61,469 nt of DNA. Origin: Treponemataceae bacterium (GTDB lineage: Bacteria > Spirochaetota > Spirochaetia > Treponematales > Treponemataceae). Under the pieces are notes generated by a model. That model saw only the letters and a list, made by a program, of their open reading frames with translations, had not been told where the DNA came from and made no database searches. The stretch is from the NCBI GenBank assembly GCA_024685655.1, contig JAIKVO010000160.1, forward strand, positions 1-61,469, read 5' to 3'. Made by a program: the position numbers and the translations under genes. Shown piece after piece: positions 20,094-57,333 of this stretch; positions within the stretch are counted from its first letter, which is position 1; each line of letters begins with the position of its first letter.

Positions 20094-20107
20094 CGGAGGC
20101 GTAAAAA

Positions 20108-30088: not shown

Positions 30089-30101
30089 GTTTTACCCCTT
30101 C

Positions 30102-30118
30102 GTCGCAATGTTGCGGCA
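30102..30118. repeat. Palindrome GTCGCAATGTTGCGGCA, 14 nt upstream of the 619-aa start codon
   Basis: Member of the family, followed on the minus strand by an SD-like GAAGGGG. Confidence 0.85.
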
Positions 30119-36100: not shown

Positions 36101-39100
36101 ACCGTAAATATTCAATGATTCTATTCCACGGCTAAGGAAATATTCCTCATAGCGGTTGAACTCCTTGCCCTCGCCTTTTCCGTGCCAGGAATCCTTGTAC
36201 GTGCCGTACGGAGGATTACCGATAACAATGTCATATTGAGGCATAGTATAGTCCTTGATTTTTGCGATTCCGTTCTTGTCGAAGAACTGCGACTGGAAAG
36301 CACCGTGAATGACGTTCGCGTCCGGATGGAGAATACGATTTATGCGCGCAGATGTCTCGTCAATCTCGTACATCGTGAACTCGTTGTCCGGGCGGTTGTT
36401 CGCGAATTTACCTGTACCTGCGGAAGGCTCAAGGACTCTCTTCGCGCCGGGTCTGTATGCGTCGGCTATCTCCCAGACTTTTTCGATTAATTTGTCAGGA
36501 GTGTAGAATTCATTGAGGACTGCATCAGCGGACCTGTCGGATTCTCCGGTTCCGCCACCGCCCTCGTACTGAGCGAGGATAGCTTTGTCCTCGTCGGTGA
36601 TTTCGGAGTCCTTCTTTTTGAGAATTTCGCGGCACTGCTCACGGATAGCCTTAATGTCCTTTTTGGAATTTGTTTTTTTCTCAGGAGCAGCGGTTTCCGA
36701 GGTTAAATATTGCTCAAGATTTCTTTCCAAGAAATCTTCTTTAGACATTCCCCACCGAGGAGTTTTTGTATAATCCACCACTGCTTCGGATTCTTTCCAG
36801 CCGTTAGAACCGTCGCTTACTTTTATCGGGACGGTATGTACGCCGGGTTCATAATCCAATGCCGTGAGAATGACAAAACCATTTTTGTTTTCTTGATATA
36901 ACCATTTGTTTATGCCGGGGAACTGAAGGAAGGAGTGATTCAGATAAACATCCGGTTTTTTATTCTCACGGGTCAAGTTTTCTGACCCGTCATGTTCTTT
37001 TGTTTCCGGCTTTGAAAGTCCTGTGAAATGGATATGAGAGGAAACGAAATCAGGAGCAGCTTCTTTCTGGACGGTGTTAGACGGAGAGACAAGAGTATAA
37101 GTGAAAACGCCGTCGGCAAGAAGCTGTTTAAGACCTTCGCCGAAAGATGACCTGCCGGTGTTTCCGGTAACGTCAAGCTTGTTTCCGTCCTTGTCACAGC
37201 GGTACATCGAAGCCATGAAATCATCGACTTTGGCTATTCTCCAATAGGAATCCTCATTGTCCTTGACTATAGTTCCGACTTTGATACCGAGCTTTTCGAT
37301 GTTGTCGGCTGTGATAATGACAGGTCGGGATTCTTCCGAAAGTTCTGCAGTAGGCTCTATTGGGAAAAGCTCTTTCTCCTTGTCGAAAAGAAATCTTGGG
37401 TATTTTACTTTTGCGCCTGCGTTAATTAACTCCTGATAAAGCTCCTTGTAGGCGGCTATGTAAGTTTTAGCCCTTTCGTCCGGTTTCTTCAGACCGTTGA
37501 TGAATGTGTCGCCGAAAATCTGGAAATTTATGTCTCCGTCATTGTCAATGACTGCAATGGATATACCGTCAGCGGCCCATTCGTCGCTGAAAATAAAGTC
37601 TCCCGGAATAATTAGAGCGATGCCTGTGTCGGGGTCGTTGAGTTCAAGGTATTTCTTTGCAGCTTCTTCCGCCGTGAGGTTAATTACAGGCTTGAATCCG
37701 CCCGTGCCGAATTCTGTGTCGTCCTTGATTGCGAAAGAGTATTCGAGGGGTTCTGTTTCTTCGGTATGAGCCGGATTCTCGATACCGTGAAGGCTGTTGT
37801 AGGTGGTTGTGATGAAATCAATGATTTCCTGCTCGTCGGGATCGACAAAAACCCTTTGTCCGTCCCGGTGTTCAAAGTCACCGAGATGACAGCGAAGATA
37901 AAGGTTGTCGGAAAATCGTTCGGTAAAAAATAAATCCGGAGACGTACCGTAAGAATAAAGGCATTCTTTTGCAGCGTATGTGGCAATTTCAGGCGAGGAA
38001 GCGTTTTTGATTATGTCGGTGAGTCTATGCATCTGGATATCGACATAATCGCGATATTGCAAGCGCATGGACTCAAAATCACGTATTTCTCCGCTTTCGT
38101 TATATTTGTCTTCAACGTAATTGAGAACATAAGACGCTTCCCTTATCTGCGGCTCGTAGACGTTCTGGAACCTCATATAAAGCTCCACGGACTTAACATA
38201 AGTGTCATACATTTTGAAATTCGCAAACTCACCATAATAACCGTTCGTTCTTATATTCTCATAATCAACGCAAGGAAGACCTCCGTCCGTCGGCAGGTAG
38301 AATTTTCCTGTATCTACGCAGTAGAAAATGTCAGCCCTGCATTTATCCCTTCCGCCAGCGGCAGCATAAAAATCATCGACCTTAAAACCTTTGTCCGAAG
38401 GATTGTCCTTGTTTACGGCGGCTTCTTTCCAGTCAAGGTTTTGTGCTATTATCGTCCAATCAGACACGCTGTTGTATTTCGCTAAAGGGGAAGATTCCCT
38501 GAACGAGCGGAATGGAACGTATGTTTTACCTTTATATTTGAAGGAATTATTTTCAAGTCCTGATTCCCCATAAATAATTTCATCGGTGACGGCATCAGAT
38601 AACTGGAAATCTTTTTCTCCAGAGACAGAAGAATTTGTCGCAACGTTGCGGCTGCTGACGCTTTCCCCAAAATCAAGCTCGTTAAGATGTGAAAGAATAT
38701 CTTTGCCGCTGAACAAATCCTTCATAGGCAGTGAGATAAAATCTACGAAATCCTTTCCTGTTTTTTCTGAAAGCCAGAAACGTTCTTTGCAATAATCAAA
38801 TACTTCCTTGTCCCAATCGATAATTGAGTTTTTGGTAAGCTCGCCGTCGCGCTCAAGAATCCTGTTGAGGATTTCATCCGCCATTTTGCCGCAGATTTTG
38901 GCGTGGACTTCGCTCAGGAGAAGGTCGTCATTGTAGGCGATGTCCGCATAATTAGGGTCATACTTCACTTCATTCCAAAGCGAGGTATTCCTGAAAATTT
39001 CTTTTCCTTTCTGCCAAAGCTCAGGGTTCATTCGCTGTATGTAGTTGTCCCAGAGATGCGTGTATTCATGCAACGCGACCTCGGAATTCATGATTTCCGG

Positions 39101-42100
39101 ATTGAGATAGATTTTGTTGTTATGTGCAAAGCCGTAAACTTGATTATCCTGTTTGTAAAAAAGGACATTCAAATTATTGACAAAATCAGATTTGCGGATT
39201 ATTTTATCATTAAAAGCATTCGTGTTGTGTATAACTCGCATATATAGCGTACCCACTTCTGCGGATGCTTCTTTTATTTCTGTATCGTTTATATATAATA
39301 AATATCCTTTATCAATCCAATTTTTCATAATGTCGATTTTATTTCTGCCATAAACGGCAGTAACCCAATTAGCTTCAACTTCTTTGGTGTTCTTGTCGAA
39401 ATGAAAACTGACCATCATTGGATTGTTATTCTTGTCAAATTGGTCATAAACACCAAGTAAATAAAAATCATTCGGAATGCTATTATTTTTCGTTGAATTA
39501 AAAATGTATCTTGGATTTCCAAGATTATTAAAAACTTCTTTTACTTCTTTGTCTGTAAACTCTCCTTTATGACCATGAGTACGTCTCTCACCAAAATTTT
39601 CTTTTTCAAGAAATAAAGCTCTAGCTAACTTCTGTTTATACATATAAACCGGATGATTATCCAAACCGCATTGCCTGAGTATAAAAGGCGTTTCTTTTGA
39701 GATTTCAATAAAATCATCTTTTACATTGATGTCCTTTATTGTAAGTTTATCAATTTCAGAATCAAGATTCTCATCGTTTTCCGAGATAAACAAATCTTCT
39801 ACTTTGTTTTCTTTTGTCATCTTCTGAAGGATAGTCTCGTTCTCAAGAATCCTGTCGAATTCAGCCTTGTCGGTGACGACCTCGATTCCGGCGTCGGCAA
39901 GCTTGTCAAGGATGAAATTCTGCTTTATGACATATTTTTCGAAAATTTTATTTATAGGGAAATAACCTTCCGTAAACTCGATTTTTAAAGAATCGGCATT
40001 GTAAACTCCGACACCTTCATAATAAGGTTTGCCGTCCTCATCCTTGTAATAGTCATTCGTAAGGTAATTTTTCGCTTCCTTGACGGCTTCTTCAAGCGAA
40101 GTATAATCACCTTTGGAATCGGAGCCGCTGTCCCTGTCGTAAGTAACGACCTGATATTTACGGTTCTCAGTCTTGTCAGGAGATTCTTTCAGTGCCTCGG
40201 CAATCGCCTCCACGTCGTTGCCTGTCTCTTTGGCTATATCAAGCGGCGATTTATTGTTGAGGTAATCATAGACTTCATCGATGTAGTTGCCAAGGATTTC
40301 TTTCTTGTAATCATCATTGCCGTCCAAAAGCTTTCTTGCTAAATCAGATTTATTGCCTTTATCCCATTCGGCAATCAGGATTTCACTGACTTTATCAAAA
40401 TATGCGGCTTCAAAAAGGTCACGACTGTTTACAGATGCACTCTGCCGGAGTTCTTCGTCTTTCTTACAAGCATCATTTATTAAGTTCACGAGAATTTCTT
40501 GTTCAGAAACATCGTTGTTTTGTTCATGCTTCTGTTCCGCGAACTTCGCGTACTGCGGGAAAAAGTCAGGACGTTCCTGGTAAAGATAACGCTCGACGGT
40601 CATTCCCTCCGGGATATGGTAATCAACCTGCATCATAGGGATTCTCTTGATTTCGTTGATGTCGAGATAACCCCACTCCGCCATTGCATAATCGCCGTTG
40701 AGGCACTGGAAGCCGAAAGCCTCTCCGTCATTTCCGATCTCGGTTACGAAAGACTCAGTTCCGGTCGGGTGGAAATACCGGAGTACTATAGGATGCTGTT
40801 CCATTCCATCCGTAGCCCTGATTTTCGGAGCGTTCTCGACTGCGGACGCGATGTTTTTGAGCGTACGCACGAAGAAATCACGTTCCTCTCTCTCGGCGAG
40901 CTGTAGTGTGGTAATATACTGGCTGTTAGGAATGAATGATTTCGCCGTCTCAAGTTCCTTGTCAGTCAGGACTAATTCCTCTTGTTCCGATGAATCATTA
41001 ATTTCATCACGCTCCTTGTCGAGTTCATCTTCTGTTTTCCTTATCCAGCGACCGTTATCGTCCTGTTTGAAAAGGATGTTTCCGTTCTCTCCTACTGAGC
41101 AGAAAGTAAGGTCAAGATAATCCTTGCCGTCAGCCTGCATGATGAGCGCATCTGAAAGACTGAAATCAAGCAGAAGCTCGTCATTATGTTCCTCAAGGTG
41201 CTTTCCGATTTCGTCAAGGTTATCCTTGACCCACTGGACATCTTTACCAGCGAGTTCGGCGATATCATCGAAGGAGATGTTGTAATTATATCCGAGATCG
41301 CTGTTGCTGTATGCGGTCTGGCATATTTCGTCGGCAAGAGCCACGAAATCGAACTGGACGGTATTATCGGATGTTTCAGGAGTTTTCTCCTGTTCAACCT
41401 TTTCGGCGGGTTCCTCATGTGATGACGATGGTGACGCGGCTCCGGTATGTTCGGAAAATATTTCGTCAAAATGTTCTGTAATGTGGTCGGCAACGTGCGT
41501 TCCGAGGTATTCCCGAAGGACTTCCATATCTTCTTCGGATATAACGTAGTCAGGAAGCATCTGTGTAGCGTCGTTGGAAGCGAAGTGAAGGTTCGTGTCG
41601 TCGTCGATATCTCTGTCGGCGGTAATATGATACGCGCTGCGCTCGATTCCGGTGGCGAAATCCGTGGGGCTTATGAGTGACCTAGCCTCTCTGACGGAGA
41701 CCTCGCGCTGTCCTTTCCGTTCGAAATTACCGGTAGCAGGGTTCTTTTTCTGGACATAGAATTTCGACGACCTCATGACGGACTCAATGGCGGCTATGCT
41801 TTCCCTGACTTCTTTGGAATCAGCAGGTTTGTCAAAAACTATGCTTTCTTCGGCGGCTATAATTTTTCTCTCAGAATCCGTAAGCGTGTTGTCGCGGTAT
41901 TTCTGGAGTATGTCAATGCAATTGTCCTTGTAAAGAAAGCTGCTGCTCTTGAAATTACTGAATCTCTTATAATCCAGGGGTTCCCAATTGGCATAAGAAA
42001 GGTTTTCCTCATATCCGGCGCGCTCGTCAAGCTCAGACTGAGTTTTGCCGTCGGGGTCGAAGCTTCCGAGCTGGTAATGCTCGGCAATAATATTTTCTGC

Positions 42101-44515
42101 GGCTTTGTCGAAATCAGTGAGATTCCTTGCTTCATTTGACGTATAAGTGCCGCCGTCGGCTTCGTTGAAGTCCCTGTCATAGAACACATAGCTCCATGAG
42201 CTATCCTCATAGCGGAGCGCAAGGAATTCGTTGAGATATTTGTTGTGGTAGTATTTCTCGAATCCGCTTTCAACGATAAGCTCGTGGAAATATTCCTCGG
42301 CATATTCTCCCCTGCCGCAAAGTTCCGCAATCTGCATGAATACGTCAATGCCGATATCGGAGATTTCCTGCCAGCTTTCCTTGTCGTTAGTGACCGATGA
42401 TTTGGCGGTTTCATAAACTTCGTCAGCCCATTCCTCGTCGGAGAAATACTCCTTGAGCTTGTCCTCCGGGATATGGTCGATGAGCCAGCGGAGATTGTCA
42501 CCGAGGTTTGCGTCCGCAGCGGCTACCTTGATTGCCTTGCGCGGGTCAGCTCCCTTGTTGAGAAGCTCAAGCCATACGTCAGGACGTGAATCAAGAGTCG
42601 CGAAATCTCTCGCAAGCTCGTCGTCAAGATTTTGTTTCTGACGGATTTCGGACAGTTCGGGAGAAACGAGGGCAAACTGGTTCGCGTAATTGCGTATCAT
42701 GTACGGAACCTCGCTCTCGGAGTAGCCGTAGGAACTGATGACGAAACCGTATCCTGGCTTGTAGTTGACCCTGCCTACGGTACGCTCGTCTTCATTAGTT
42801 TTTATGATATCAAGCTGCTCTTTTTCCTTGTCAAAACGGAATTCGAATCCACCTTTGTGTACTATATCAAGTATTGCTTCGTCGTCAAGGTATTCCATTT
42901 CGCCTTTATGGAATAGATATGCTTGGTTGATGAAGGAAGAAATGTCGTCGGCAGCCGGGGAAACGAAATGGCTGCCGTTCGGACTGTGATTGATATGTCC
43001 GAGACCGCACCTTAAGAAAACGCAGTCCCGCTGGTCCTCGACAAACTCGTCGGTTCCGAACTGGTAGAGGTAATGAACGGCGGCAAGTTTAGCTATTTCA
43101 GGCGTACGAGCCTGCTTGATAATGCTTTCCAGCTCCTGCATACGGAGCGTGACTATGGCGGAATGCCCTCCCTCAAAAAGCCTGCGGAGCCTTGCGTCGC
43201 CGATATATCTGGAATTGTTCTCGATATATGCTTCCTTAAGCTTCTCATAGTCATCCAAGGTCTTCTTGTTCTTTTCGTGGAATTCAGTCGTTACACTTGT
43301 GAAAAGCTCGTCTGCTTCTGCTATGTTTTTTTCTTCATTGGTTTTAGTATCGTCAGTTACGGTCGAAGTTTCCGGTTCCGTCTCTACATTACCGCCGGAT
43401 TTTTCCTGCTCTACATGCTCTGGGATTACGGCAGTTTCTTCCGCGACCTCGGAGTTTTCTTTAAGTTGTGTTTTTCCGGCGGGGGCGGATACAGCCTGTT
43501 CTTCGTGTTGAGAACCAAGCCTTTCAAGGCGTCCGAGATATTCCTTGATTGTGCCGGATTTCTCAGGTGTTATCGGATTGACGTCAACCGGAATTCCGTT
43601 TATCTGCAGGTGTTCATCGGCTATTACGTTGAAAAGGTCGTCTTCTCTCCACTCTCCTTCATAATTCTCTGTTCCGTACTGAACGAGTATTTTGATATGT
43701 TCGTCTTTATCCGGATTGCCGTAAACAGATATGCCGCCTATATATGGTTCCGGAACGAGGTCATGGAATATATTCTGGATGTCTTCCTCGATGAGAGATT
43801 CAATTTCATGCTTCTTGTAGCTTTCTCCGTTTATAAGATATGTGGGTTCATCATCGATGCTGCTTGTAGATATGTCTTGGGGTACCGCCGGAGAAAATTG
43901 TTTATTTTCCTGTGATTGAAGATTCTGCCTGAGTCGTTCGTTCTCCTCCCGGAGCGAGCGGTTATCTTCTTGTAGCTGAGAAATGACATCAGTGAATCTT
44001 GCGAACTCGACGGACTCATTTATTATTTTATCTTTGAGCATATTCGCGATTCTCTCGTATGCCGCAGGTGTAAGCTCATAGTCCATGCTCTTCTCGATGA
44101 TTTTAAGAAGAAGGTCGTCGGCGGAATCACCGGTAAGTATCTCCTGATGAAATGTTTTATCAGATGAGACAGGTTGCGAGATTTGTTCTCCACCGTTTGT
44201 TCCGGATGTCGAGTCCTGGGAAGAGGAACTTCCGGATTCAGGATTGGCTGAATCTTCTGCGAGCAATGACGAGGACTGCTCCGGAAAGAACTTTTCCGTA
44301 AAGTCCTTGATGAAATCGTCGCAACCGCGCTTAGCCTCGGCTGTGAAAGGATACCATCTTCCGGTCGTCCCCTCGCCTTTTTTGCTGTAATATCTCCAGC
44401 CGTTCTGCTTGAGGTAGTCCAGAATTTCTTTGTCCGGTCTGTTGCTGAAAGATATGTTCGTGAAAGGAATGCCGTCATTCCGGATGAAGTTCATTGTAAG
44501 TTTTTCATTGCTCAT
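30128..44515 (-). CDS. Giant polyvalent protein (4795 aa): coiled coils, repeated modules, zincin, N6-adenine DNA methylase, SNF2-family helicase
   Basis: VLEPSAGTGKFANN and IVIGNPPYGTY (N6-MTase); AYEVGVGKTAAG, VDEAHRFKN, MLTATPFTNSPLEVYSML, EGRIHRQGNAQG (SNF2); EVALHEYTHLWDNY (HExxH zincin). Confidence 0.9.
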   Translation of the reverse strand: MSNEKLTMNFIRNDGIPFTNISFSNRPDKEILDYLKQNGWRYYSKKGEGTTGRWYPFTAEAKRGCDDFIKDFTEKFFPEQSSSLLAEDSANPESGSSSSQDSTSGTNGGEQISQPVSSDKTFHQEILTGDSADDLLLKIIEKSMDYELTPAAYERIANMLKDKIINESVEFARFTDVISQLQEDNRSLREENERLRQNLQSQENKQFSPAVPQDISTSSIDDEPTYLINGESYKKHEIESLIEEDIQNIFHDLVPEPYIGGISVYGNPDKDEHIKILVQYGTENYEGEWREDDLFNVIADEHLQINGIPVDVNPITPEKSGTIKEYLGRLERLGSQHEEQAVSAPAGKTQLKENSEVAEETAVIPEHVEQEKSGGNVETEPETSTVTDDTKTNEEKNIAEADELFTSVTTEFHEKNKKTLDDYEKLKEAYIENNSRYIGDARLRRLFEGGHSAIVTLRMQELESIIKQARTPEIAKLAAVHYLYQFGTDEFVEDQRDCVFLRCGLGHINHSPNGSHFVSPAADDISSFINQAYLFHKGEMEYLDDEAILDIVHKGGFEFRFDKEKEQLDIIKTNEDERTVGRVNYKPGYGFVISSYGYSESEVPYMIRNYANQFALVSPELSEIRQKQNLDDELARDFATLDSRPDVWLELLNKGADPRKAIKVAAADANLGDNLRWLIDHIPEDKLKEYFSDEEWADEVYETAKSSVTNDKESWQEISDIGIDVFMQIAELCGRGEYAEEYFHELIVESGFEKYYHNKYLNEFLALRYEDSSWSYVFYDRDFNEADGGTYTSNEARNLTDFDKAAENIIAEHYQLGSFDPDGKTQSELDERAGYEENLSYANWEPLDYKRFSNFKSSSFLYKDNCIDILQKYRDNTLTDSERKIIAAEESIVFDKPADSKEVRESIAAIESVMRSSKFYVQKKNPATGNFERKGQREVSVREARSLISPTDFATGIERSAYHITADRDIDDDTNLHFASNDATQMLPDYVISEEDMEVLREYLGTHVADHITEHFDEIFSEHTGAASPSSSHEEPAEKVEQEKTPETSDNTVQFDFVALADEICQTAYSNSDLGYNYNISFDDIAELAGKDVQWVKDNLDEIGKHLEEHNDELLLDFSLSDALIMQADGKDYLDLTFCSVGENGNILFKQDDNGRWIRKTEDELDKERDEINDSSEQEELVLTDKELETAKSFIPNSQYITTLQLAEREERDFFVRTLKNIASAVENAPKIRATDGMEQHPIVLRYFHPTGTESFVTEIGNDGEAFGFQCLNGDYAMAEWGYLDINEIKRIPMMQVDYHIPEGMTVERYLYQERPDFFPQYAKFAEQKHEQNNDVSEQEILVNLINDACKKDEELRQSASVNSRDLFEAAYFDKVSEILIAEWDKGNKSDLARKLLDGNDDYKKEILGNYIDEVYDYLNNKSPLDIAKETGNDVEAIAEALKESPDKTENRKYQVVTYDRDSGSDSKGDYTSLEEAVKEAKNYLTNDYYKDEDGKPYYEGVGVYNADSLKIEFTEGYFPINKIFEKYVIKQNFILDKLADAGIEVVTDKAEFDRILENETILQKMTKENKVEDLFISENDENLDSEIDKLTIKDINVKDDFIEISKETPFILRQCGLDNHPVYMYKQKLARALFLEKENFGERRTHGHKGEFTDKEVKEVFNNLGNPRYIFNSTKNNSIPNDFYLLGVYDQFDKNNNPMMVSFHFDKNTKEVEANWVTAVYGRNKIDIMKNWIDKGYLLYINDTEIKEASAEVGTLYMRVIHNTNAFNDKIIRKSDFVNNLNVLFYKQDNQVYGFAHNNKIYLNPEIMNSEVALHEYTHLWDNYIQRMNPELWQKGKEIFRNTSLWNEVKYDPNYADIAYNDDLLLSEVHAKICGKMADEILNRILERDGELTKNSIIDWDKEVFDYCKERFWLSEKTGKDFVDFISLPMKDLFSGKDILSHLNELDFGESVSSRNVATNSSVSGEKDFQLSDAVTDEIIYGESGLENNSFKYKGKTYVPFRSFRESSPLAKYNSVSDWTIIAQNLDWKEAAVNKDNPSDKGFKVDDFYAAAGGRDKCRADIFYCVDTGKFYLPTDGGLPCVDYENIRTNGYYGEFANFKMYDTYVKSVELYMRFQNVYEPQIREASYVLNYVEDKYNESGEIRDFESMRLQYRDYVDIQMHRLTDIIKNASSPEIATYAAKECLYSYGTSPDLFFTERFSDNLYLRCHLGDFEHRDGQRVFVDPDEQEIIDFITTTYNSLHGIENPAHTEETEPLEYSFAIKDDTEFGTGGFKPVINLTAEEAAKKYLELNDPDTGIALIIPGDFIFSDEWAADGISIAVIDNDGDINFQIFGDTFINGLKKPDERAKTYIAAYKELYQELINAGAKVKYPRFLFDKEKELFPIEPTAELSEESRPVIITADNIEKLGIKVGTIVKDNEDSYWRIAKVDDFMASMYRCDKDGNKLDVTGNTGRSSFGEGLKQLLADGVFTYTLVSPSNTVQKEAAPDFVSSHIHFTGLSKPETKEHDGSENLTRENKKPDVYLNHSFLQFPGINKWLYQENKNGFVILTALDYEPGVHTVPIKVSDGSNGWKESEAVVDYTKTPRWGMSKEDFLERNLEQYLTSETAAPEKKTNSKKDIKAIREQCREILKKKDSEITDEDKAILAQYEGGGGTGESDRSADAVLNEFYTPDKLIEKVWEIADAYRPGAKRVLEPSAGTGKFANNRPDNEFTMYEIDETSARINRILHPDANVIHGAFQSQFFDKNGIAKIKDYTMPQYDIVIGNPPYGTYKDSWHGKGEGKEFNRYEEYFLSRGIESLNIYGLNDVLVYVVPSGFLKSQVDSAKIKIASEGILIDAYRLPEGTFPTTEVGTDIVVFMRNKDKDTSQSLRLLGNDAWFEDHPEKILGQVKTRTNRFGKEESYVTPHDGLSVQDELDKISVLCAESVRARKEAIIDGYIKDNLEWLVNERQCSREDTADMLHLLYHKFEHSEAFERAKVIPLAFGDGQKQVIPEDNNLFTGSFDYSRKFKVGKQELIDVIGILDDTLDYHTVWDRAFAVQHGMEKKDVARLLTWNHAGNQWDLSESHHEFMDIAPEAEQEKSPDEPQELPEKTVQKSYAQIALESVKNGGAKNSVLDALLTGQVADNDYKNENALKLLRISSIDDWRSGFYRYDSDLKVIVNVRTLESVLYHSHYNHNRFIIAASDRDGFITPFFDENSPDFKKLTSNQKDKLRKSVEWYEKEINRIRDVFVGYEDGKFYLKDRNDRISKYSERPFFVPETNEIAMLNTENTLVAGLGFDYKDYKIWGSKKDIGDVVTGGYDDIKKNYNYTCGIYYASYDSLYPADGKYDIGRIIEENKQIEDSTQKERASYPLTDSLPYSKLEDNYKKQLASKKKAALALSGISGEEWFDKAIAYYDDKVKKHAEKLSVRNAEIRKTEDANVVLDCILSHKLTDRESFEAGSSYVLCLGTEKGTDVLINGKKALNIDSNNKSLVTYNNYYVTEQFVKALYDRFGGELSVSNVKFNEPARPVLSKLIKENLPAAPDEYLVNGITQFALDSTRIHIGGKPPKADFGGHTATLTQSGIISSVYLDGGKEPVIRFNRKSNLLTLYQSAFDSGAIESLENAFRNVYDKLHVTKYVTIDNVHYCDNDGFTVIMPEKASQTYHPEKTDIMSSDEFTKLYGTSWNEDERIFWEFTDYENYVDITKLTSEQSEKLRKSSNYYEEKDGRYIHRELFASGDIYQKIAANDEYFNKGQLSEESYHRNRDFLEKNVPVPYRFEEISVSVKSPFVRNLNIDGLPLPELFLQWATGCNLEDSRNSRFEINDFTQAGISREDIPPDIYWSDITDYIDGNPVKVDSAIKDEDKRKKIANEKANSRKVAAETLFSRFLREGLSKVGQDIFVTSYNRNFNYNKEPDYSRLPLFVYGMNRYKNGEPFTLYEQQIKGVAALSNKGNGLLAYEVGVGKTAAGVVSTVNQIQTGRSERPFIFVPKSVIKAWENDIRELFPDITLNVLGNMSYKNIAPYYDGNHGLNLQPGSITLCTHEALNNISFKRETVEEYLFGDFADLLALNDALDSTNPHERAEAEKKILDYAGCSSAANNDNYVFFENTGCDHVTVDEAHRFKNLYKVPRPKKGEKNEFQGMGSGTPSKRAAKMFAVTQYVQRENNDRNVFMLTATPFTNSPLEVYSMLSYIARKELEKQGIKDLYSFCEQYASTRLEQNVTHKNEIVYASVMKEFNDVQGLQNTLKKYIDKVDAEEALVIRPDRVVHPVYLQPTKLQQEIFEFAHNLMNYNPGEDEKRAPVLEGLNLINKASLSPALISEDQLTDPYTHLPSGIALPSADELVESSPKLKTVFDTVVKNWRSHKDCGQIVYSNIGTDEFSTMAKYLNKQGVPVSAIAIINGSDVIMGGKKVPGGSDEARDTVKDAFNDIHNPCKILIGSAAISEGMNLNGNSIALYNLTLGWNPTESVQVEGRIHRQGNAQGRVHIVYPLLEDSCDPFLYQKHDEKSSRIDDLFSYKSGSKMSVSGIDPQEAKFALIKNPATLADFEIQNKVNELEKQKLVYESQLQDYDSLVTARITFTERLNKRTEDKAAYEANFLKSGRTPDEQQRGIERLDKSLGDCKTNLVNIGKKLVAMGIENDADASQFSVSTNRKIDSLKEKIERLKSQEHKQEITEKWKMKLLEDNLLKSRRADTGNLAESISGDLVPFEVTEERVQKERWRIACENKERDPGKYEKAKSAWEKYCNKKAEKETSFGNASTGIPGEPENDYSLNKSEKNAAAAVPTSPKLIPPPRPEQKKVLSGGEQLSLF
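36968..36990. repeat. ACGGGTCA-N7-TGACCCGT palindrome inside the giant ORF
   Basis: Reverse complement GACGGGTCAGAAAACTTGACCCGT is identical over 24 nt to the first copy in the Rep-like gene; encodes DGSENLTR. Confidence 0.92.
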
Positions 44516-44539
44516 TTTGTTGCCTCTTTATAGTTTTTC

Positions 44540-44557
44540 TGCCGCAAGGTTGCGGCA
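44540..44557. repeat. Palindrome TGCCGCAAGGTTGCGGCA, ~25 nt upstream of the giant ORF start
   Basis: Perfect 8-bp arms with a 2-nt centre. Confidence 0.88.
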
Positions 44558-44570: not shown

Positions 44571-47009
44571 TCAGTTTCCCTTGAAACCTACGCCGCCAAG
44601 CTCCCTGCGGAGTTTCTGGTTCTCATTCTGGAGAGCCTTGTTTTCTTTTGTAAGCTTCTCGTTCTCATCGCAAAGCTCATTGTTCGTGTCTATGATTTTG
44701 TCCAGCCGTCGGACAGCGTTGCGGAATCCCTCGGCAAGTCCTTCCTTGCACTCACGGAGAGTGCCGTCAACGTCGATAGTGACAGGCTCGGTGTTTGAAG
44801 CAGGAACATGTTCTTCATGCTGAGGGGGAAAAGGTGTTGACTTTTCATATGAATTTGATATAGTTTTCAACGGAGGGACGTTTAGTACGTCCTCTCTGGT
44901 CGGATTGACCGTCACCAGCTGCTTGCCAGTTGTACGCTCAATCATCTGCCCGATTTCATCTGACACATATATCAGCTGGTCGGGCTTTTTTATTTTATTC
45001 ACAACGTTGTTGATGTCTCTTTCATGGGTTGAGATCGAAACGTTCTCATTCTCGATGGAAACTACGACAGATTGTACGGCCTTGTTTTTTCCGTTCATGA
45101 CGAATGATTTGGCATAAATATGAGCCGCATTCATATCACCGAATACGCTTTGCCTTTCCTCGTTGATTACGAGGTCAGGAATCTTTAGGGTGTCATAGAC
45201 AGCCTGCAAAATTGATTGTCGCTCATTTGCATTTAGCTTCTCAAACTGATGTTCTCCAAGTTTTACTTTCTCAACAGGCGTATCTATCATTGAATAAGGG
45301 AAAAGCTTATTGTAGTTTTCCCTCGTAAAAGGAATATCAGACAAAGGACGTGCAGTTTCGTTCAAAGCATCTTTCAGGCAGTTTTTCAATGAATCTAAAT
45401 ATGTTTTTTCGTTTGTAAAATTAGATTTTTTGGTTTGTGCGGCGGTCTCCACGGCAGGTTCCCTGCGGAAATTTTTAGGCTTCCCGAAAATAGGCGCGAC
45501 AAGCTCCGCTGACTCGCGGATGTCATCCAGTGATATCTCGCGCCTGTTGTCCATGTTCGCAATCGTAAGCGCGACTTTAAGCATGTTCTGTCCGTCGCGG
45601 ACGCTGTAATTGTCCTTGATGCCGTCGAAGAATTCCTGGCACTTTTGGTCGAGCTTGCACATCTTGGCGAACTCTACACCGTTGAGGGCGGAGTTTTTTA
45701 CGCCGTTCTCGCGTTGTATCTTATATGCGTTCGCGACATGCTCCTTCATCTCCTGAACTGTTATTTTACGGGTGTCTTTCTCGTCCTTCTCGAAATGCTG
45801 CTTGATTTCGATGCGGGAAAGAACGCCGCTGTCGATTTTCTTCCAGTACTGGTCAACGGATTTATCTGAGCAGAGACAGATTTTTCCGGCGGAACCGTAG
45901 TTTCCGCACGGACAAGGGTTGTTTGCCATGACAATCTGAGCGTCCGCAGGATACATGGTATGCCTACCCGCGCGGCTGAGAGTTATTGATTTGTTCTCCA
46001 TAGGAACGCGGAGACTTTGAAGCACAGAGAATCTGAACTCAGAAGCATCGTCAAGGAAAAGCGTTCCGTTATGGGCAAGGGTAATTTCGCCCGGACGAAT
46101 GTCGGAGCCGCCGCCGACCATCCCCTCAAGGCTCGAACTACGATACGGCATCCTGAAAGGGGGTCTCCTTGAGTCTATGTCATTAGGATTAAGAAGACCG
46201 GCGATGCTTTTTATTCTTTTTACGGTATTTGCTTCTTCCTTCGTCAGGTCAGGAGTAAGCGCGGGAATAAGGCAATAGGATAAAAGTGTCTTTCCGCTTC
46301 CGGGGGCGCCCTCAAGAAGAATGTTGTGCCTTCCGGCGACCGCGATCTCTATCGCGCGGCATACGTCGTAATAGCCGTCAAGACTCATCGAAGAGGCTTC
46401 ATCAAGAAGCTTCTCGTCGAATGTAATGCCGGACGGTTCGTTCTTCTTAAGGTTGGTGTCCTCGATTGAAATAAACTTCTCGTTGGCAAATAGTTTCTCA
46501 TGCGCCTCGGAGAGAGTGCTGACGCTCAATACCTTCGCGCCGGGAACCAATAGAGCCTCATTAGCGTTTATATCAGGGACGACGAAATTGGTTATGCCCT
46601 CGGAAACAGCTTTTTCCAAAGCTGCTGTGACTCCCCTGACCGGAAGTATGTTGCCGTTTGAGTCGATGTCTCCGACAGCAAGGATTTTCTCGCCGTCATG
46701 ACCATAGCCACCGTGTTCCTCGTTGAGGACAGAGAGAGCCATAGCAAGAGGAAGCATGTCTCCGTCCTTCCTAATGTCTGCCGGACTTAGGGACATAAGG
46801 ACCCGTTCCGGCGGGAAAGGAAGATTCTGCTTGGTGAAAGCTGACCTTATGCGGTTACGAACGTCCGATACCACTCCGTCTGCCAATCCAACGATATCGA
46901 CCGCAGGTATACCGCGTCTTAGATCAGTCTCAACATATATGATATTTCCCTCGTAACCGAAGGAAGAATATCCGTAAATAGTGCTTTTTTCGTTCTCTGT
47001 GTCTGCCAT
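44571..47009 (-). CDS. ComM/YifB-like (Mg-chelatase-type) AAA+ ATPase with extra C-terminal coiled-coil module
   Basis: YGYSSFGYEGNIIYVETDLRRGIPAVDIVGLADGVVSDVRNRIRSAF, LLEGAPGSGKTLLSYCLIPAL Walker A, PCPCGNYGS. Likely start MADTENEK at 47009; the track's MSADKP extension covers intergenic palindrome. Confidence 0.88.
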   Translation of the reverse strand: MADTENEKSTIYGYSSFGYEGNIIYVETDLRRGIPAVDIVGLADGVVSDVRNRIRSAFTKQNLPFPPERVLMSLSPADIRKDGDMLPLAMALSVLNEEHGGYGHDGEKILAVGDIDSNGNILPVRGVTAALEKAVSEGITNFVVPDINANEALLVPGAKVLSVSTLSEAHEKLFANEKFISIEDTNLKKNEPSGITFDEKLLDEASSMSLDGYYDVCRAIEIAVAGRHNILLEGAPGSGKTLLSYCLIPALTPDLTKEEANTVKRIKSIAGLLNPNDIDSRRPPFRMPYRSSSLEGMVGGGSDIRPGEITLAHNGTLFLDDASEFRFSVLQSLRVPMENKSITLSRAGRHTMYPADAQIVMANNPCPCGNYGSAGKICLCSDKSVDQYWKKIDSGVLSRIEIKQHFEKDEKDTRKITVQEMKEHVANAYKIQRENGVKNSALNGVEFAKMCKLDQKCQEFFDGIKDNYSVRDGQNMLKVALTIANMDNRREISLDDIRESAELVAPIFGKPKNFRREPAVETAAQTKKSNFTNEKTYLDSLKNCLKDALNETARPLSDIPFTRENYNKLFPYSMIDTPVEKVKLGEHQFEKLNANERQSILQAVYDTLKIPDLVINEERQSVFGDMNAAHIYAKSFVMNGKNKAVQSVVVSIENENVSISTHERDINNVVNKIKKPDQLIYVSDEIGQMIERTTGKQLVTVNPTREDVLNVPPLKTISNSYEKSTPFPPQHEEHVPASNTEPVTIDVDGTLRECKEGLAEGFRNAVRRLDKIIDTNNELCDENEKLTKENKALQNENQKLRRELGGVGFKGN

Positions 47010-47024
47010 ATAATTTTCTCCTTC

Positions 47025-47042
47025 TGTCGCAACGTTTAGGCA
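47025..47042. repeat. Degenerate palindrome TGTCGCAACGTTTAGGCA upstream of the ComM-like start
   Basis: Same family, imperfect arm; followed on the minus strand by AGAAGGAG. Confidence 0.7.
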
Positions 47043-47061
47043 ATTTATGTATTCCAGCGGT

Positions 47062-49314
47062 TTATCCGCGCTCATGTTCCTTGTTATGGTTCTTCTTGTT
47101 TAGCTGTTCCTTGAGTCTCATGTTCTCCATTACGAGACGGTTGTTCTCGTCGCAAAGCTCATGGTTAGTGTCAATGATGCCGTCAAGCCTTCTGACAGCG
47201 TTCTTGAAGCCTTCGAGGACTCCGTTCCTGCACTCACGCTCTTTTCCGTTTACGTCGATTGTGAAAGGCTCCGTAAGAGGATTGCCGACAGAGTTCGAGT
47301 TTTTCTGAATCTGTGGACTGAACTGGCTTTCATAGATTTTTTTTGCGACATCAGAAATCTCATGCAGTTCCTCGTGCTCCGTATATTCGCGGATTTTCTC
47401 TACATCGCCTGATTTGAGGGCATGATAGAATTCTTGTGCCTCAAACTGCGCAAGCTCACGAGCGTCAAGATTGCTTTTTTCTGTATAATAGCCAAAAAAT
47501 TTCTGTTCGATTGCAGATTGCTTCCTGATTTCATCGTAAAAAGCGTGTCCGTCAGTGAAGATGTCCTTGACATCACCGAATTTCTCCAATATGCTGTTAG
47601 CAGATTCCAAGCAGCGTTCGTGCAGGGGACTCTGTACGACCTGACTGCTCACGTCAGCGACATTGATTCGCTGTTGGGCAATCAGGGCTTGGAGTTTTTC
47701 TTTGTTACCGTAAATCATCTTTCCCTGATTTATCCAGTTCAGCCAGTCAACGTTATCTTTTGGGAAAATAGTACGAATGGAAGAAACTTCAAGACCGTTT
47801 TTCTTCTGATTAAAATGAACACCTGCAAGAAAGTTTTTCCCGTCTTTCTCTAGATTCACGATTACATTCTGAGATTTGTTTCTGTCACCATAAGAAAAAA
47901 CGGCTATAGGAGTCTGTAATGCCTCGTCCAAACCGAAAATATCATTTACTTCAAAAGGATGAGATTTTAAATTTGACTTGAATTTAAGGCGAGAGCCTGA
48001 AAGCTCTATCCGCTGGTCTTTAGGGAAACCGCATTTCTGCAATATCTCGCCCGGAATGCCAAGATTGAAAACATGGCCTTCAGGAAGCTTTCCGTCTGTA
48101 TAGTCTGAGAGTTCTTTGTCAAACTGTGATTTTACTGTTTCAGTATCCTTGATTTGTCTATTATCTATCATGTTGTAAATTTGACCATCTTTTTGGACAT
48201 ATAATTGATTAGTCCGTACAAGTTCTATCGCTTCTTCTGTAGGACGCCAGAAATTGGTCAGAGGATTCCTTTCAAGGTAAGGGAGCTGCGGAACTTGACA
48301 GATTCGGAAAAGACGCTTATCATAATAAGGGTTGTGGCTATTCTGCCCTTTTTTGTGCGGATGAACTGCTTCAGCTGAACGCCCGATGCTATCCGGACGA
48401 TTTATTCGGTTAACTGCATCGGGTTCTTTTTTAATCAAATCAATGAATTTGCCTTTCTCTATGTCAGAAAGGCTCTGGTCATAATAAATATCACCGTTAT
48501 TTTTTTCTGTAAAAACGATTTTTGCTGTGTAATCAACATTATTTAACTTGATTCCTAAAGCATAGTAATAGAATTTCTTCAACTCTGGTTTTCTATGGTC
48601 ATCATTGTTCTCTGTTCCAATATAAATAGAAGAGCGGATAATTTCTGGTATATTATAAATACCTTCGATATGGCCAGGCTGGTAAAGATTATGTCTGCTC
48701 ACTTCCTTTATACCGGCAAAACTGAAATTATATGTTTTTCCGTCATCATTTATATGAAACTTGGGATTCTCGTATGGTGAAAGGTTGTTTTCGAGTCGAA
48801 TGTCATGAATCATTTCTTTGCCGAGAGCAACAACATAATTATTAAGTAACTTTATGTTCTTTTTGGAAGGGTTCTCCCGAAGTTCATTGATTTTGTCAGT
48901 AACATCCTCTCCATTAATTATAATGGAGCCGTCGATTGATAAGGGTTTGGATTTTTTGAGTTTTTCTATTCTGTTTATCTTTTCCCAATCACCGAATTGT
49001 CTTATAAACTCATCAGAATGTATATACTCATCATGGACGTTCTTTTGTTGTTCCATCTCAAGAAGCAACGTTACTATGGTGTCGTTATGAGACCTCATGT
49101 ATTCATGGCAGCATTCCTGTATCTGGTCGGTGTCTCCAAGAAAAGTCTCCATGAAGACATCTTTTCCGTCCGACCAGAAATATGCGCTTCTGCCGTAATC
49201 AGGATTAGAATTATGATAATAGATATAATCATCGAAATCTTTAGCTGATAAATGCGGGAACATCTGATTGAAGTCCGAGCCGCTTTTTGCGTTTGGATTT
49301 ATGATAAGTGCCAT
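47062..49314 (-). CDS. Polyvalent-type protein with possible LPD/BECR-like and MuF-C-like domains plus the shared C-terminal coiled-coil module
   Basis: HIEGIYNIPEIIRSSIYIG...YYYALGIKLNNVDYTAKIVFTEKNNGDIYYDQSL; PIAVFSYGDRNKSQNVIVNLEKDGKNFLAGVHF; tail IDVNGKERECRNGVLEGFKNAVRRLDGIIDTNHELCDENNRL. Likely start MALIINPNA at 49314. Confidence 0.6.
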   Translation of the reverse strand: MALIINPNAKSGSDFNQMFPHLSAKDFDDYIYYHNSNPDYGRSAYFWSDGKDVFMETFLGDTDQIQECCHEYMRSHNDTIVTLLLEMEQQKNVHDEYIHSDEFIRQFGDWEKINRIEKLKKSKPLSIDGSIIINGEDVTDKINELRENPSKKNIKLLNNYVVALGKEMIHDIRLENNLSPYENPKFHINDDGKTYNFSFAGIKEVSRHNLYQPGHIEGIYNIPEIIRSSIYIGTENNDDHRKPELKKFYYYALGIKLNNVDYTAKIVFTEKNNGDIYYDQSLSDIEKGKFIDLIKKEPDAVNRINRPDSIGRSAEAVHPHKKGQNSHNPYYDKRLFRICQVPQLPYLERNPLTNFWRPTEEAIELVRTNQLYVQKDGQIYNMIDNRQIKDTETVKSQFDKELSDYTDGKLPEGHVFNLGIPGEILQKCGFPKDQRIELSGSRLKFKSNLKSHPFEVNDIFGLDEALQTPIAVFSYGDRNKSQNVIVNLEKDGKNFLAGVHFNQKKNGLEVSSIRTIFPKDNVDWLNWINQGKMIYGNKEKLQALIAQQRINVADVSSQVVQSPLHERCLESANSILEKFGDVKDIFTDGHAFYDEIRKQSAIEQKFFGYYTEKSNLDARELAQFEAQEFYHALKSGDVEKIREYTEHEELHEISDVAKKIYESQFSPQIQKNSNSVGNPLTEPFTIDVNGKERECRNGVLEGFKNAVRRLDGIIDTNHELCDENNRLVMENMRLKEQLNKKNHNKEHERG

Positions 49315-49343
49315 GATGTTTTCCTTTTCCGTTACATTCCTTC

Positions 49344-49361
49344 TGCCGCAACATTGCGGCA
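49344..49361. repeat. Palindrome TGCCGCAACATTGCGGCA, 30 nt upstream of the 776-aa start
   Basis: Perfect 8-bp arms with a 2-nt centre. Confidence 0.9.
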
Positions 49362-49378
49362 ATTTATATATCCGCGGT

Positions 49379-50743
49379 TTATCCGCGCTCATGTTCCGTG
49401 TTATGGTTCTTCTTGTTCAGCTGTTCCTTGAGACGCATGTTCTCCATCACGAGGCGGTTGTTCTCATCGCAAAGCTCGTGGTTCGTGTCTATTAAACTGT
49501 CAAGTTGCCTGACCGCGTTTTTGAATCCTTCGAGAACGCCGTTCTTACATTCCCGCTCTTTACCGTTAACTTCAATCTTCATATAATATTTAAGAGGATT
49601 GTTTGACTTTTCTTGTGATTGTGGTAATATATTGTAAGAAGCAATGACAGCTCCCACCTGAGCGTATATGCCGAGAAACTCAGGCGTGTCTCCGTACTGC
49701 GCGATTACCGCGTTTACGGATTCTGTCGCTTCTTTTTTTGTCTGGTTATTGTCATAGCCGGTGATAACATATCTGCCATTCTTGTCTTTTCCTATTACGG
49801 TTTTTATTCCTTTGTTATAAACTGCGAAATGTCCGCTATCCTCTTTAACGGCAGGGGCTTTGTCGATGTTGTCAACGGCGAGGAACAACACTGCGGAAGT
49901 TTCTTTCTTTGCCAGTTCCTCGTCCATTTGGATTTTCTTGTTTGTTACACGTTCCCGAATTCGATGGTCAATGAGATGGACAAGCCCTTCGTTCAATCCT
50001 CCGCGCTTAACACGTACATCTCCGTCCAATGTCGGATTCTTCCGGGTTATGACTTCACCGTTCTCAAGGATATCAGCAAGGTCAGACATAAGTTCTTTGT
50101 CTTTTTGAAGGTTGTGTTTAAATTTCTGATGATTAAGAAGAGATGATTTAGTGAGTAGAGTTTGATTCTCTGTATGAAGAATATCAAGTGGGAAATTAAC
50201 GCCTGTACGATTGCACCAGGCTTCTATTTTTCTGTCGTCAACATAACCGCAAAGACCGTCATTTGCCCATTTTTTAATTAAATCTGTACCGGAATTTACG
50301 ATAAAATTTATGCCATGACCTGAACGAATGTCTTGAATTTCTGAATTTATGTCTAAAACAATGCCAATCGGATTATTGTCTTTGAATATGTCGGTAAGTA
50401 CAAGCTTCGAATCAGATTTATTTTTTGAGGCTGCTTTCTCAAAATCAAAAACAAGGACAGGATTATACAGATTGAAAAGTGAATCCGATATTTCATCATA
50501 ATTGAGACCGTGGGTTTCTATGATTTTCTGAACGATAGAGACTGGCATTGTAACTTCAGTTAATTTGTTTCCAGTCTCTTGAAGGACTATAGGAGTCTTG
50601 CCTATTACGAAAAGGTCATTCGATGGATGAATACCTTTATTAATATATTTCTTAAGCGCAATGTTGAATTCCTGCGTATAATTATACCATTCCTCGGTCA
50701 AAGGCTCTACAAAGAAATCTCCTATGTTTTCTGTATTTTTCAT
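49379..50743 (-). CDS. MuF-C-like domain protein with the shared C-terminal coiled-coil module
   Basis: IGKTPIVLQETGNKLTEVTMPVSIVQKIIETHGLNYDEISDSLFNLYNPVLVFDF...SKLVLTDIFKDNNPIGIVLDI; tail IEVNGKERECKNGVLEGFKNAVRQLDSLIDTNHELCDENNRL. Confidence 0.6.
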   Translation of the reverse strand: MKNTENIGDFFVEPLTEEWYNYTQEFNIALKKYINKGIHPSNDLFVIGKTPIVLQETGNKLTEVTMPVSIVQKIIETHGLNYDEISDSLFNLYNPVLVFDFEKAASKNKSDSKLVLTDIFKDNNPIGIVLDINSEIQDIRSGHGINFIVNSGTDLIKKWANDGLCGYVDDRKIEAWCNRTGVNFPLDILHTENQTLLTKSSLLNHQKFKHNLQKDKELMSDLADILENGEVITRKNPTLDGDVRVKRGGLNEGLVHLIDHRIRERVTNKKIQMDEELAKKETSAVLFLAVDNIDKAPAVKEDSGHFAVYNKGIKTVIGKDKNGRYVITGYDNNQTKKEATESVNAVIAQYGDTPEFLGIYAQVGAVIASYNILPQSQEKSNNPLKYYMKIEVNGKERECKNGVLEGFKNAVRQLDSLIDTNHELCDENNRLVMENMRLKEQLNKKNHNTEHERG

Positions 50744-50859: not shown

Positions 50860-51705
50860 CTAGAATATTTCTGCCATACTTCTGTCTACGCGCCTGTCCT
50901 TCTTCTCAGGCTTCTTCTGCTCGACCTTGTTCTCCTGCTCCTTCTGCTTCGGAGAAAGGTCGATGTTGTTAGCCTTGGCGACTTCCTTGACCATATCGAC
51001 GCTCTTTTTGTCGCACTCGAAAAGGTAATCATGGAGAGGGCTTCCCTTCTCCTTGAAACGGTCGTGCTTGAACTGTTTGTCGCAGATCTCAGTCATTTTC
51101 TGCTTGAAAGCGTCCGTGACTTCCTGGGAGACTTTGACAGTAAGACCGCTCTTGGCGGCGGCGAGGTATGCTGGGAGATAATCGTCAGCTTTTGTAACCT
51201 CGATGATGATGCCCTCAAGCTTCTTCTTATCCTTGAGATGATTTTTCTCGGCGTATGCTGCTACTTTGTCTGGATGCTCGGACTGGTCGGCGAAGTACAG
51301 GGTTGATGTTGATATCTGCGTCTTGCCCTGCTCGTCCTTCTCGGCTTTCGCGAAATTGTACATGATTCCTTTCTCGCCCTGCTTCCTCTGCGTTCCAGCA
51401 GCCTTCATGTTCCATGCGTCGGAGACGACGTTGCTCTCGAATCCTCTCTCTGCTTTCATAATCTGGGCTGGAATAAGCGTCTGGGCAGGAAGAATGTAGC
51501 CTGTACGTGCGTTATAGATTGACTCCGGCGCGAGTACGCCGTCTTTCGGAAGAAGCGGGGAGGAAACGTTCTCTAAAGTTTCCTTGATGATTTTAGCGTT
51601 GTGATAAGGTATCACATTGCCGCTAAAATTTTTTGATGATGGTCTTACGTCGGCGGTTGTTGACTGGATTTCAGTGGTTTCTGATGACTTGATTTCTTCT
51701 GGCAT
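50860..51705 (-). CDS. Uncharacterised element protein, Lys/Glu-rich C-terminus
   Basis: Likely start MPEEIKSSETTE after RBS AAGGAG. Confidence 0.55.
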   Translation of the reverse strand: MPEEIKSSETTEIQSTTADVRPSSKNFSGNVIPYHNAKIIKETLENVSSPLLPKDGVLAPESIYNARTGYILPAQTLIPAQIMKAERGFESNVVSDAWNMKAAGTQRKQGEKGIMYNFAKAEKDEQGKTQISTSTLYFADQSEHPDKVAAYAEKNHLKDKKKLEGIIIEVTKADDYLPAYLAAAKSGLTVKVSQEVTDAFKQKMTEICDKQFKHDRFKEKGSPLHDYLFECDKKSVDMVKEVAKANNIDLSPKQKEQENKVEQKKPEKKDRRVDRSMAEIF

Positions 51706-51839
51706 TGTATTGCTCCTTGAATTACCTGGACACAAGCTCAAGAAAACACAGCTCAAAGAACGTAGGAGTGCTGTCCTTCGCTGGTGCTTTCCAGTAATAA
51801 TTTCCGCTCCGTACGGAGAGGATTAAAAGGCAACGGATA

Positions 51840-54618: not shown

Positions 54619-54906
54619 ATGAAACATACGGAAAGCTACATCGATAACACAATAGAGACTCCTGAAAACATTCCAAAGAATATAAAGGCACTCCTGCAAG
54701 AGCTTCATAAGTGGGACGAATCTGGGCAGGAAGGAGCCGATGTTTTTTATTATGACCGCCTTGATGACCTGTGGGTCAATGCAAAAAACGCTGTTGCCGC
54801 CGGAGTGATGTCAAAGAAAGACTGGAAGACTATCGAGCAGAAATACTGGATTCATGCCGACATCGTTATGCAAAAGGAAGATAACAATGAAAATATACGA
54901 ACTTGA
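54619..54906 (+). CDS. Small partner protein of a HipA/CtkA-like kinase
   Basis: Overlaps the kinase start (ATG 54887); similar to the 76-aa ORF before the other CtkA-like kinase. Confidence 0.55.
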   Translation: MKHTESYIDNTIETPENIPKNIKALLQELHKWDESGQEGADVFYYDRLDDLWVNAKNAVAAGVMSKKDWKTIEQKYWIHADIVMQKEDNNENIRT

Positions 54907-55900: not shown

Positions 55901-55902
55901 AC

Positions 55903-55966
55903 TTGACTTTTTGCATGGATATGATACAAGAATAATTAAGATTTTTCCTGTATAGCATTTCCTGCA
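55903..55966 (+). repeat. Leader repeat copy 1 (TTGACTTTTTGCATGGATATGATAC...AGAATAATTAAG..TTTTCCTG.ATA.CATTT)
   Basis: Near-identical blocks also at 58637-58659 and 58702-58744. Confidence 0.75.
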
Positions 55967-56017
55967 ATGTCATTGCCGGACGATTCAATATACATGCAAT
56001 AATCAAGAAGGAATTAT

Positions 56018-57331: not shown

Positions 57332-57333
57332 GT

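What the first reader, a model, noticed from the sequence alone, without database searches (positions are those of the whole stretch)
44571..49585. Shared ~70-aa C-terminal module on three consecutive, otherwise different proteins
The ComM/YifB-like ATPase (834-aa ORF), the 776-aa ORF and the 454-aa ORF all end with the same module: (F/V)xI(D/E)V(N/D)GxxREC(K/R)xGxxEGF(K/R)NAVR(R/Q)LDxxIDTN(H/N)ELCDEN followed by a Leu/Asn heptad coiled coil. Two copies (~47065-47270 and ~49382-49585) are also very similar at the DNA level, which points to recent duplication or recombination. The bodies of the proteins differ, so this looks like a transferable tag, perhaps for co-assembly or for targeting or delivery of element proteins. 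I do not recognise the module from a named family.
Basis: partly seen in the sequence, partly recalled or inferred. Interest (0 to 1): 0.82.

Follow-up and report, generated by a model that had tools for sequence, protein, structure and literature searches.

The report
Shared C-terminal tag on conjugation-element toxins
A family of mobile DNA elements in rumen spirochaetes puts the same small hairpin-plus-coiled-coil tag on the end of several unrelated, toxin-like proteins, probably so that the element's conjugation machine, or proteins travelling through it, can pick them up.

Summary
Three consecutive ORFs end in the same ~70-aa module: a beta-hairpin and a long coiled-coil helix (AlphaFold2 pLDDT 86). 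The bodies differ: MuF_C plus a PBECR1-like region; LPD3 plus MuF_C; ComM plus PBECR2. The window is part of an integrative conjugative element (ICE) with a VirB/VirD4 T4SS, relaxase and Tyr recombinase, seen whole in a same-genus rumen MAG. Profiles found about 20 tails in 11 Treponemataceae-type genomes, all but a frameshifted remnant at a C-terminus, all in ICE-like contexts. Five lie inside T4SS operons. None was found in viral contigs, phages or plasmids. Stand-alone PBECR1 proteins carry the tail in ICEs (4/4) but not elsewhere (0/5); BECR domains inside giant polyvalent proteins mostly lack it. Tails are under strong purifying selection (dN/dS mostly 0.06-0.24), and the hairpin half has been exchanged between genes. 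'Recent duplication' of the two similar copies is not supported (dS about 1.2). No named family covers the hairpin core. Best explanation: a docking or translocation tag for stand-alone effectors of a conjugative T4SS, working like XVIPCD or BID but a member of neither (confidence 0.42). Transport itself is untested.

The parts
44574..44792 (-). C-terminal tail of the ComM-PBECR2 protein (hairpin, then a longer coiled coil ending GGVGFKGN)
47065..47280 (-). C-terminal tail of the LPD3-MuF_C protein
49382..49597 (-). C-terminal tail of the MuF_C-PBECR1-like protein
44571..47075 (-). ORF 834 aa: ChlI (48-170), Mg_chelatase/ComM ATPase (234-432), Mg_chelatase_C (441-523), PBECR2 (598-694, below the curated cut-off), tail; likely start at 47012
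47062..49392 (-). ORF 776 aa: LPD3 (211-304), MuF_C (474-568), tail; likely start at 49314
49379..50743 (-). ORF 454 aa: MuF_C (73-174), PBECR1-like region (about 221-375, by homology to the 252-aa PBECR1 protein, not by a Pfam hit of its own), tail; gene absent at the same site in the G002 element
30128..44515 (-). Giant 4795-aa polyvalent protein (MuF_C, Eco57I-type methylase, SNF2 helicase, weak LPD16; C-terminus ...QLSLF); no tail
50860..51756 (-). 298-aa ORF (very weak ArdC-N similarity) heading the gene group; conserved in related ICEs
49343..49360 (.). 18-bp palindrome 5' of the likely true start of the LPD3-MuF_C gene
47026..47043 (.). Degenerate copy of the palindrome 5' of the likely true start of the ComM gene
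44539..44556 (.). Palindrome 5' of the giant polyvalent gene
30100..30117 (.). Palindrome 5' of the 619-aa gene; G002 has an extra ~545-aa module at this point
19302..21277 (+). ParA-like and ParB-like genes at the start of the element (names from reading the sequence, no profile search run on them); conserved in G002, distant homologues in G305

Best explanation
The module is a transferable C-terminal recruitment tag. It marks stand-alone, toxin-like or polyvalent effector proteins encoded by a family of spirochaete ICEs and most likely brings them to the element's own VirB/VirD4 T4SS, through the coupling protein VirD4 or through a coiled-coil adaptor or the giant polyvalent protein. The effectors (BECR-fold RNase-like domains, LPD3, ComM-like ATPase) would then enter the recipient with the DNA. 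Shown: shared tail, C-terminal position, different bodies, protein-level selection, exchange between genes, restriction to these ICEs in the collections searched, presence inside T4SS operons. Predicted: hairpin-plus-helix fold. Inferred: binding to VirD4 or a partner, and translocation.
For: Element: a complete syntenic ICE in G002 has VirB4, VirB6, VirB10, VirD4 and a relaxase and a Tyr recombinase (Xer-like profile hits on its C224 homologue). Distribution: 9 of 11 tail-bearing genomes have this VirB4 against 37 of 264 others (Fisher p about 2e-6; genomes are related, so indicative only); the other two are fragmented assemblies. No match in viral contigs, plasmids or phages. Operon slots: in G305, G184, G186 and G160 five tail genes sit inside T4SS operons, between VirD4 and VirB11 or between VirB4 and VirB5, most with overlapping or abutting neighbours. 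Bodies: PBECR1, PBECR2, PBECR3 (weak), MuF_C, LPD3, CdiA_C-like (weak); PBECR domains are predicted RNases of proteins thought to be injected with DNA (PMC5512222). Stand-alone PBECR1 proteins from a search that did not use the tail: 4 of 4 in ICEs have the tail, 0 of 5 elsewhere. BECR or MuF_C domains in giants of G157, G019, G305, the window and G002 lack it. Selection: dN/dS 0.06-0.24 between the six colinear tails, 0.30 for w776 versus w834. Remnants: 132-aa and 127-aa ORFs are little more than the end of a BECR domain plus the tail, like the near-XVIPCD-only ORFs of Xanthomonas (PMC6536674). Precedent: VbhT, a toxin with a C-terminal BID signal, is delivered by a conjugative T4SS (PMC5675462).
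Against: The relaxase, VirD4 and the window's giant do not carry the tail, whereas BID signals are shared with relaxases. The tail lacks the XVIPCD-like and VirE2/VirF-like patterns tried, and its net charge is near neutral. Many ICEs with a 60-70% identical VirB4 have no detectable tail, so it is not required for conjugation. Some multidomain ICE BECR proteins below 1000 aa also lack it, and one 1396-aa protein has it. No transport or binding data exist.
Confidence: 0.42

Rival explanations
1. Oligomerisation module: the coiled coil makes effectors dimerise with one another or co-assemble, for example on the giant polyvalent protein, and has no role in export.
For: Predicted ~50-residue helix with 55-100% hydrophobic or Asn residues at a/d positions; the main length difference between tails is exactly one heptad; weak hits to the YabA and ZapB coiled coils; the giant protein's N-terminal coil is a weak tail-profile hit. 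PBECR1 of 261 aa in G184 keeps a coil without the hairpin.
Against: The hairpin and turn are the best conserved part, and a dimerisation helix alone would not need them; restriction to ICEs and absence from stand-alone PBECR1 proteins elsewhere is not predicted.
Confidence: 0.25
2. The tail anchors effectors to the relaxosome or the transferred DNA, so that they ride with the T-strand without contacting VirD4.
For: Association with polyvalent proteins of the DNA-establishment type and with a conserved neighbourhood of giant genes.
Against: No DNA-binding motif was recognised in the tail; no tail on the relaxase.
Confidence: 0.13
3. The tail is a neutralisation or control handle: it binds an immunity protein, or holds the nuclease inactive in the donor, and is released on transfer.
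For: No dedicated immunity gene is obvious beside each toxin-like gene; the tail directly follows the BECR domain in several proteins.
Against: One tail type serves unrelated bodies, including LPD3 proteins, where a toxin-specific inhibitor makes little sense; the model of PBECR1 plus tail is too poor (pLDDT 41) to show packing.
Confidence: 0.13
4. The tail is only a recombination-maintained 3' constant segment (tail-leader-palindrome, ~265 bp) of an integron-like cassette system, with no protein function.
For: A tail-bearing 354-aa gene is present in G002 between two palindromes, with a single palindrome at the empty site in C224; a whole tail gene is present or absent at the window's 454 site; a module difference at the palindrome 30100.
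Against: dN/dS mostly 0.06-0.24; protein conservation at 30-56% identity in genus-g4 ICEs, which mostly lack this palindrome; palindromes recur at equivalent genes across ICEs with diverging sequence, which suits operators better.
Confidence: 0.07

Closest known systems
XVIPCD of Xanthomonadales bacteria-killing T4SS effectors
   Same: Common C-terminal domain on many unrelated effector bodies; required for VirD4 interaction and secretion; near-domain-only remnants occur; one effector gene lies in the vir locus (PMC6536674).
   Different: XVIPCD is ~120 aa with its own N-terminal motifs and a Gln-rich C-terminal region; our tail is ~70 aa, hairpin plus coiled coil, Gln-poor, and belongs to a conjugative element.
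BID domain / VbhT conjugative toxin (Bartonella)
   Same: A toxin with a C-terminal module delivered by a conjugative T4SS alongside DNA (PMC5675462).
   Different: BID is shared with the relaxase; ours is not on the relaxase, and the bodies are not FIC domains.
Polyvalent proteins of conjugative elements and phages
   Same: Bodies are built from MuF_C, PBECR1/2/3, LPD3, LPD16, SNF2/methylase modules (PMC5512222).
   Different: The passages read there describe no common C-terminal tag; that paper found PBECR2 in phage-type polyvalent proteins only, whereas here it is on an ICE protein.
MuF polymorphic toxins of temperate phages
   Same: MuF-linked toxin-like domains on variable proteins (PMC5576092, abstract only).
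   Different: There the constant delivery part is N-terminal and phage-borne; here the constant part is C-terminal and ICE-borne.
YabA / ZapB coiled-coil proteins
   Same: Weak profile match to the coiled-coil half.
   Different: Hairpin core unmatched; scores below the curated cut-offs.

Membership tests
XVIPCD | Common C-terminal domain on unrelated effector bodies | tested here: met
XVIPCD | About 120 aa with conserved N-terminal motifs and a Gln-rich C-terminal region | tested here: not met
   Length ~60-80 aa; Gln 0-13% in the last 30 residues; GLxRIDHV-like pattern (recalled from memory) absent
XVIPCD | Binds VirD4 and is needed for secretion | not testable with these tools
   No binding or transport data
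BID domain | Domain also present on the cognate relaxase | tested here: not met
   Tail profile finds no relaxase in the ICEs read
BID domain | Helical-bundle fold (recalled) | tested here: not met
   Predicted hairpin plus single long helix
Polyvalent proteins of conjugative elements | Several disparate domains in one protein, encoded beside a T4SS | tested here: met
Integron-type gene cassettes | Cassettes each ending in a recombination site used by a cognate integron integrase | tested here: inconclusive
   Insertions bounded by a palindrome exist; the recombinase scores far below the integron-integrase cut-off (94 vs 265 bits)
YabA / ZapB | Score above the curated family cut-off | tested here: not met
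   21.4 vs 30 bits and 13.4 vs 31.5 bits for member 1

The most novel reading that the evidence does not exclude
A previously undescribed T4SS recruitment domain in spirochaete ICEs: a hairpin-coiled-coil tag by which nuclease modules freed from giant polyvalent proteins are still delivered, non-covalently, by the conjugation machine.
Probability: 0.35. Interest if true: 0.8.

Novelty: new variant of a known kind. Interest (0 to 1): 0.56.

Why it matters
If the tag is a T4SS signal, any protein ending in it can be predicted to be injected during conjugation. That would turn the proposal that polyvalent proteins enter with the DNA into a testable, portable-signal question, in spirochaete elements for which the one combined literature search made here found no dedicated paper.

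Tried and rejected
Named-family explanation: Pfam, PHROGs and PDB sequence searches gave only coiled-coil or weak, non-specific matches. Fold search of the tail model against PDB: nothing significant. Structure of PBECR1 plus tail: too shallow an alignment, pLDDT 41, not used. Phage origin: no viral, phage or plasmid hits. Phylum-wide hits outside the family are coiled-coil matches, mostly to one ~283-aa protein of one family, rejected; two weak longer ones (G391, G464) were not read. Weak family hits in G290, G287 and G205 rejected as internal or plain coiled coil; those in G042, G312, G258 and G221 cover the coil only; a weak second hit in G230 (C52:131449) was not read. Simple rule 'every small BECR protein of an ICE has the tail': rejected, several multidomain ICE proteins of 550-970 aa lack it. 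Integron idea: kept only as a rival, because palindrome positions recur at equivalent genes across ICEs.
Full report
WHAT IS THERE. The three tails exist as described. They lie at 44574-44792, 47065-47280 and 49382-49597 on the minus strand, each the last 72-73 residues of its ORF. The consensus is xIxV(N/D)GxxRECxxGxxEGF(K/R)NAVRxLDxxIDTNxELCDEN, followed by Leu/Asn heptads. The bodies differ: 834 aa = ChlI + Mg_chelatase + Mg_chelatase_C (a ComM-like ATPase) + a PBECR2 match below the curated cut-off; 776 aa = LPD3 + MuF_C; 454 aa = MuF_C plus a region homologous to a 252-aa PBECR1 protein. The next gene is a 4795-aa giant with MuF_C, a methylase and a SNF2 helicase. These are domains of 'polyvalent proteins' (PMC5512222).

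SURROUNDINGS. The window is a whole contig (C108) of an 88%-complete genome. A same-genus genome, G002 (record title: Spirochaetaceae bacterium, water-buffalo rumen), holds the syntenic element uninterrupted over about 76 kb, from a ParA-like gene to a Tyr recombinase and then chromosomal genes. It encodes VirB4, VirB6/TrbL, VirB10/TrbI, VirD4 and a MobA/VirD2-type relaxase by Pfam; VirB11 and other Vir labels are mine, from position and sequence. So the element is an ICE. The window contains its left part; a 5.3-kb contig of the same genome (C224, L006) holds a fourth tail gene, an out-of-frame tail remnant and the recombinase.

HOW WIDE IS THE TAIL. Profiles found the tail in 11 genomes of the family searched (275 genomes), at about 20 C-termini; the only out-of-frame copy is the C224 remnant. 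Named records among these are ruminant-gut Treponema or Spirochaetaceae MAGs. Over 395 genomes of the phylum hits outside the family are much weaker and, apart from two unread ones, cover only the coil. Nothing was found in viral contigs, 72,556 plasmid records or 50,697 phage records. In genus g4 the tails are about 29-56% identical to the window's, yet keep the hairpin, the G..(E)GF..AV turn and a coil whose main length difference is one heptad. Bodies there: PBECR1, PBECR3 (weak), LPD3, a CdiA_C-like fragment (weak) and unknown.

STRUCTURE. AlphaFold2 on ten tails gives strands 6-10 and 13-17 and one helix 20-71, mean pLDDT 86. No solved structure resembles it significantly. Pfam, PHROGs and PDB sequence matches cover only or mainly the coil. 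The hairpin core is therefore unnamed in the libraries searched.

EVOLUTION. Pairwise dN/dS between the six colinear tails is 0.06-0.24; the two similar window copies have dS about 1.2, so they are not a recent duplication. Between the orthologues w776 and the G002 956-aa protein, dS is 0.13-0.48 along the body, jumps to 1.13 in the first half of the tail and falls to 0.34 in the second half: the hairpin half was most likely exchanged with another tail (36 codons, so the estimate is rough). The 454 gene is absent from G002 at the same site.

LINK TO THE T4SS. Nine of 11 tail genomes have a VirB4 of this kind against 37 of 264 others, Fisher p about 2e-6; the two exceptions (the window's genome and G253) are fragmented, and G253 has VirB6 and relaxase on the same contig. 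Genomes are related, so the p-value is indicative only. In G305, G184, G186 and G160 tail genes occupy two slots inside the T4SS operon, between VirD4 and VirB11 or between VirB4 and VirB5. Two of these (132 and 127 aa) are little more than a BECR C-terminus plus tail, as reported for near-XVIPCD-only ORFs in Xanthomonas (PMC6536674).

SOLO VERSUS EMBEDDED EFFECTORS. To avoid choosing proteins by their tails, PBECR1 and MuF_C were searched directly. Of nine PBECR1 proteins with open frames under 500 aa, the four in ICEs all have the tail and the five elsewhere do not (exact probability 1/126 by hand). One of the five is in a prophage with portal, terminase and head genes; the others showed no ICE-type neighbours apart from one PBECR2-like ORF, and were not proven to be phage. 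In giants (G157, G019, G305, window, G002) BECR or MuF_C domains have no tail. Exceptions: a 1396-aa protein has the tail; several ICE proteins of 550-970 aa in which MuF_C or PBECR1 is fused to another ICE domain do not; a 261-aa PBECR1 in G184 has a coil without the hairpin.

MECHANISM. The pattern is what a recruitment tag would give: effector domains in giants need no tag of their own, stand-alone ones do. I propose recruitment to VirD4, directly or via an adaptor. VbhT with its BID domain (PMC5675462) and XVIPCD effectors show that this arrangement exists; some F-plasmid substrates also use C-terminal signals (PMC11288057). The tail is not a member of either family (see membership test). 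Against: it is not on the relaxase, it has no strong basic cluster, and many related ICEs lack it. Confidence 0.42; oligomerisation is the main rival.

SIDE FINDING. The DNA similarity of the tail genes continues into an 18-bp palindrome TTGYCGCAAYRTTGCGRC lying about 12-28 nt before many starts. All 17 zero-mismatch hits in G002 fall in C74:106510-158919, and 59 other genomes have none. Related ICEs carry diverged versions around ACGT, often at equivalent genes, which favours an operator or partition site. Some insertions between the two ICEs have this palindrome at their edge, which leaves a cassette-junction role possible.

Noticed in passing
window 28142-28159, 30100-30117, 38635-38652, 44539-44556, 47026-47043, 49343-49360; G002 C74:94392-158919: ICE-specific 18-bp palindrome (TTGYCGCAAYRTTGCGRC) before many starts and inside the topoisomerase and giant genes; related ICEs have diverged palindromes with central ACGT (G019 GCGACGTCGC, G186 GCGAAACGTTTCGC, G157 CGCAACGTTGCG). 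Candidate operator/stoperator, ParB site or cassette junction.
   Followed up: partly
window 30128-44515, C-terminus: The giant polyvalent protein ends in GGEQLSLF (GGDQLSLF in G002), which looks like a sliding-clamp binding motif (recalled, not tested).
   Followed up: no
window 38583-38804: The giant genes of window and G002 lose DNA similarity around an internal palindrome (38635-38652), suggesting module exchange inside the gene.
   Followed up: partly
window 30088 / G002 C74:96341-97976: G002 carries an extra ~545-aa N-terminal module (LPD23 and weak metallopeptidase-like hits) on the 619-aa protein's orthologue.
   Followed up: no
window 54854-60038: Several HipA-like kinase ORFs; those at 56018-58566 and 59103-60038 lie in insertions absent from G002, so this is a variable cargo spot.
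   Followed up: no
L006 1458-1848: A 124-aa gene whose end reads out of frame through a truncated tail; it looks like a recombination scar containing a piece of the 354-aa gene's body.
   Followed up: partly
L050 1049-8734 (G230): A 2561-aa giant (ComM, RNase_T, RadC, LPD16, LPD25) ends with a hairpin-like stretch plus coil that may be a remote tail; not confirmed by the profile.
   Followed up: no
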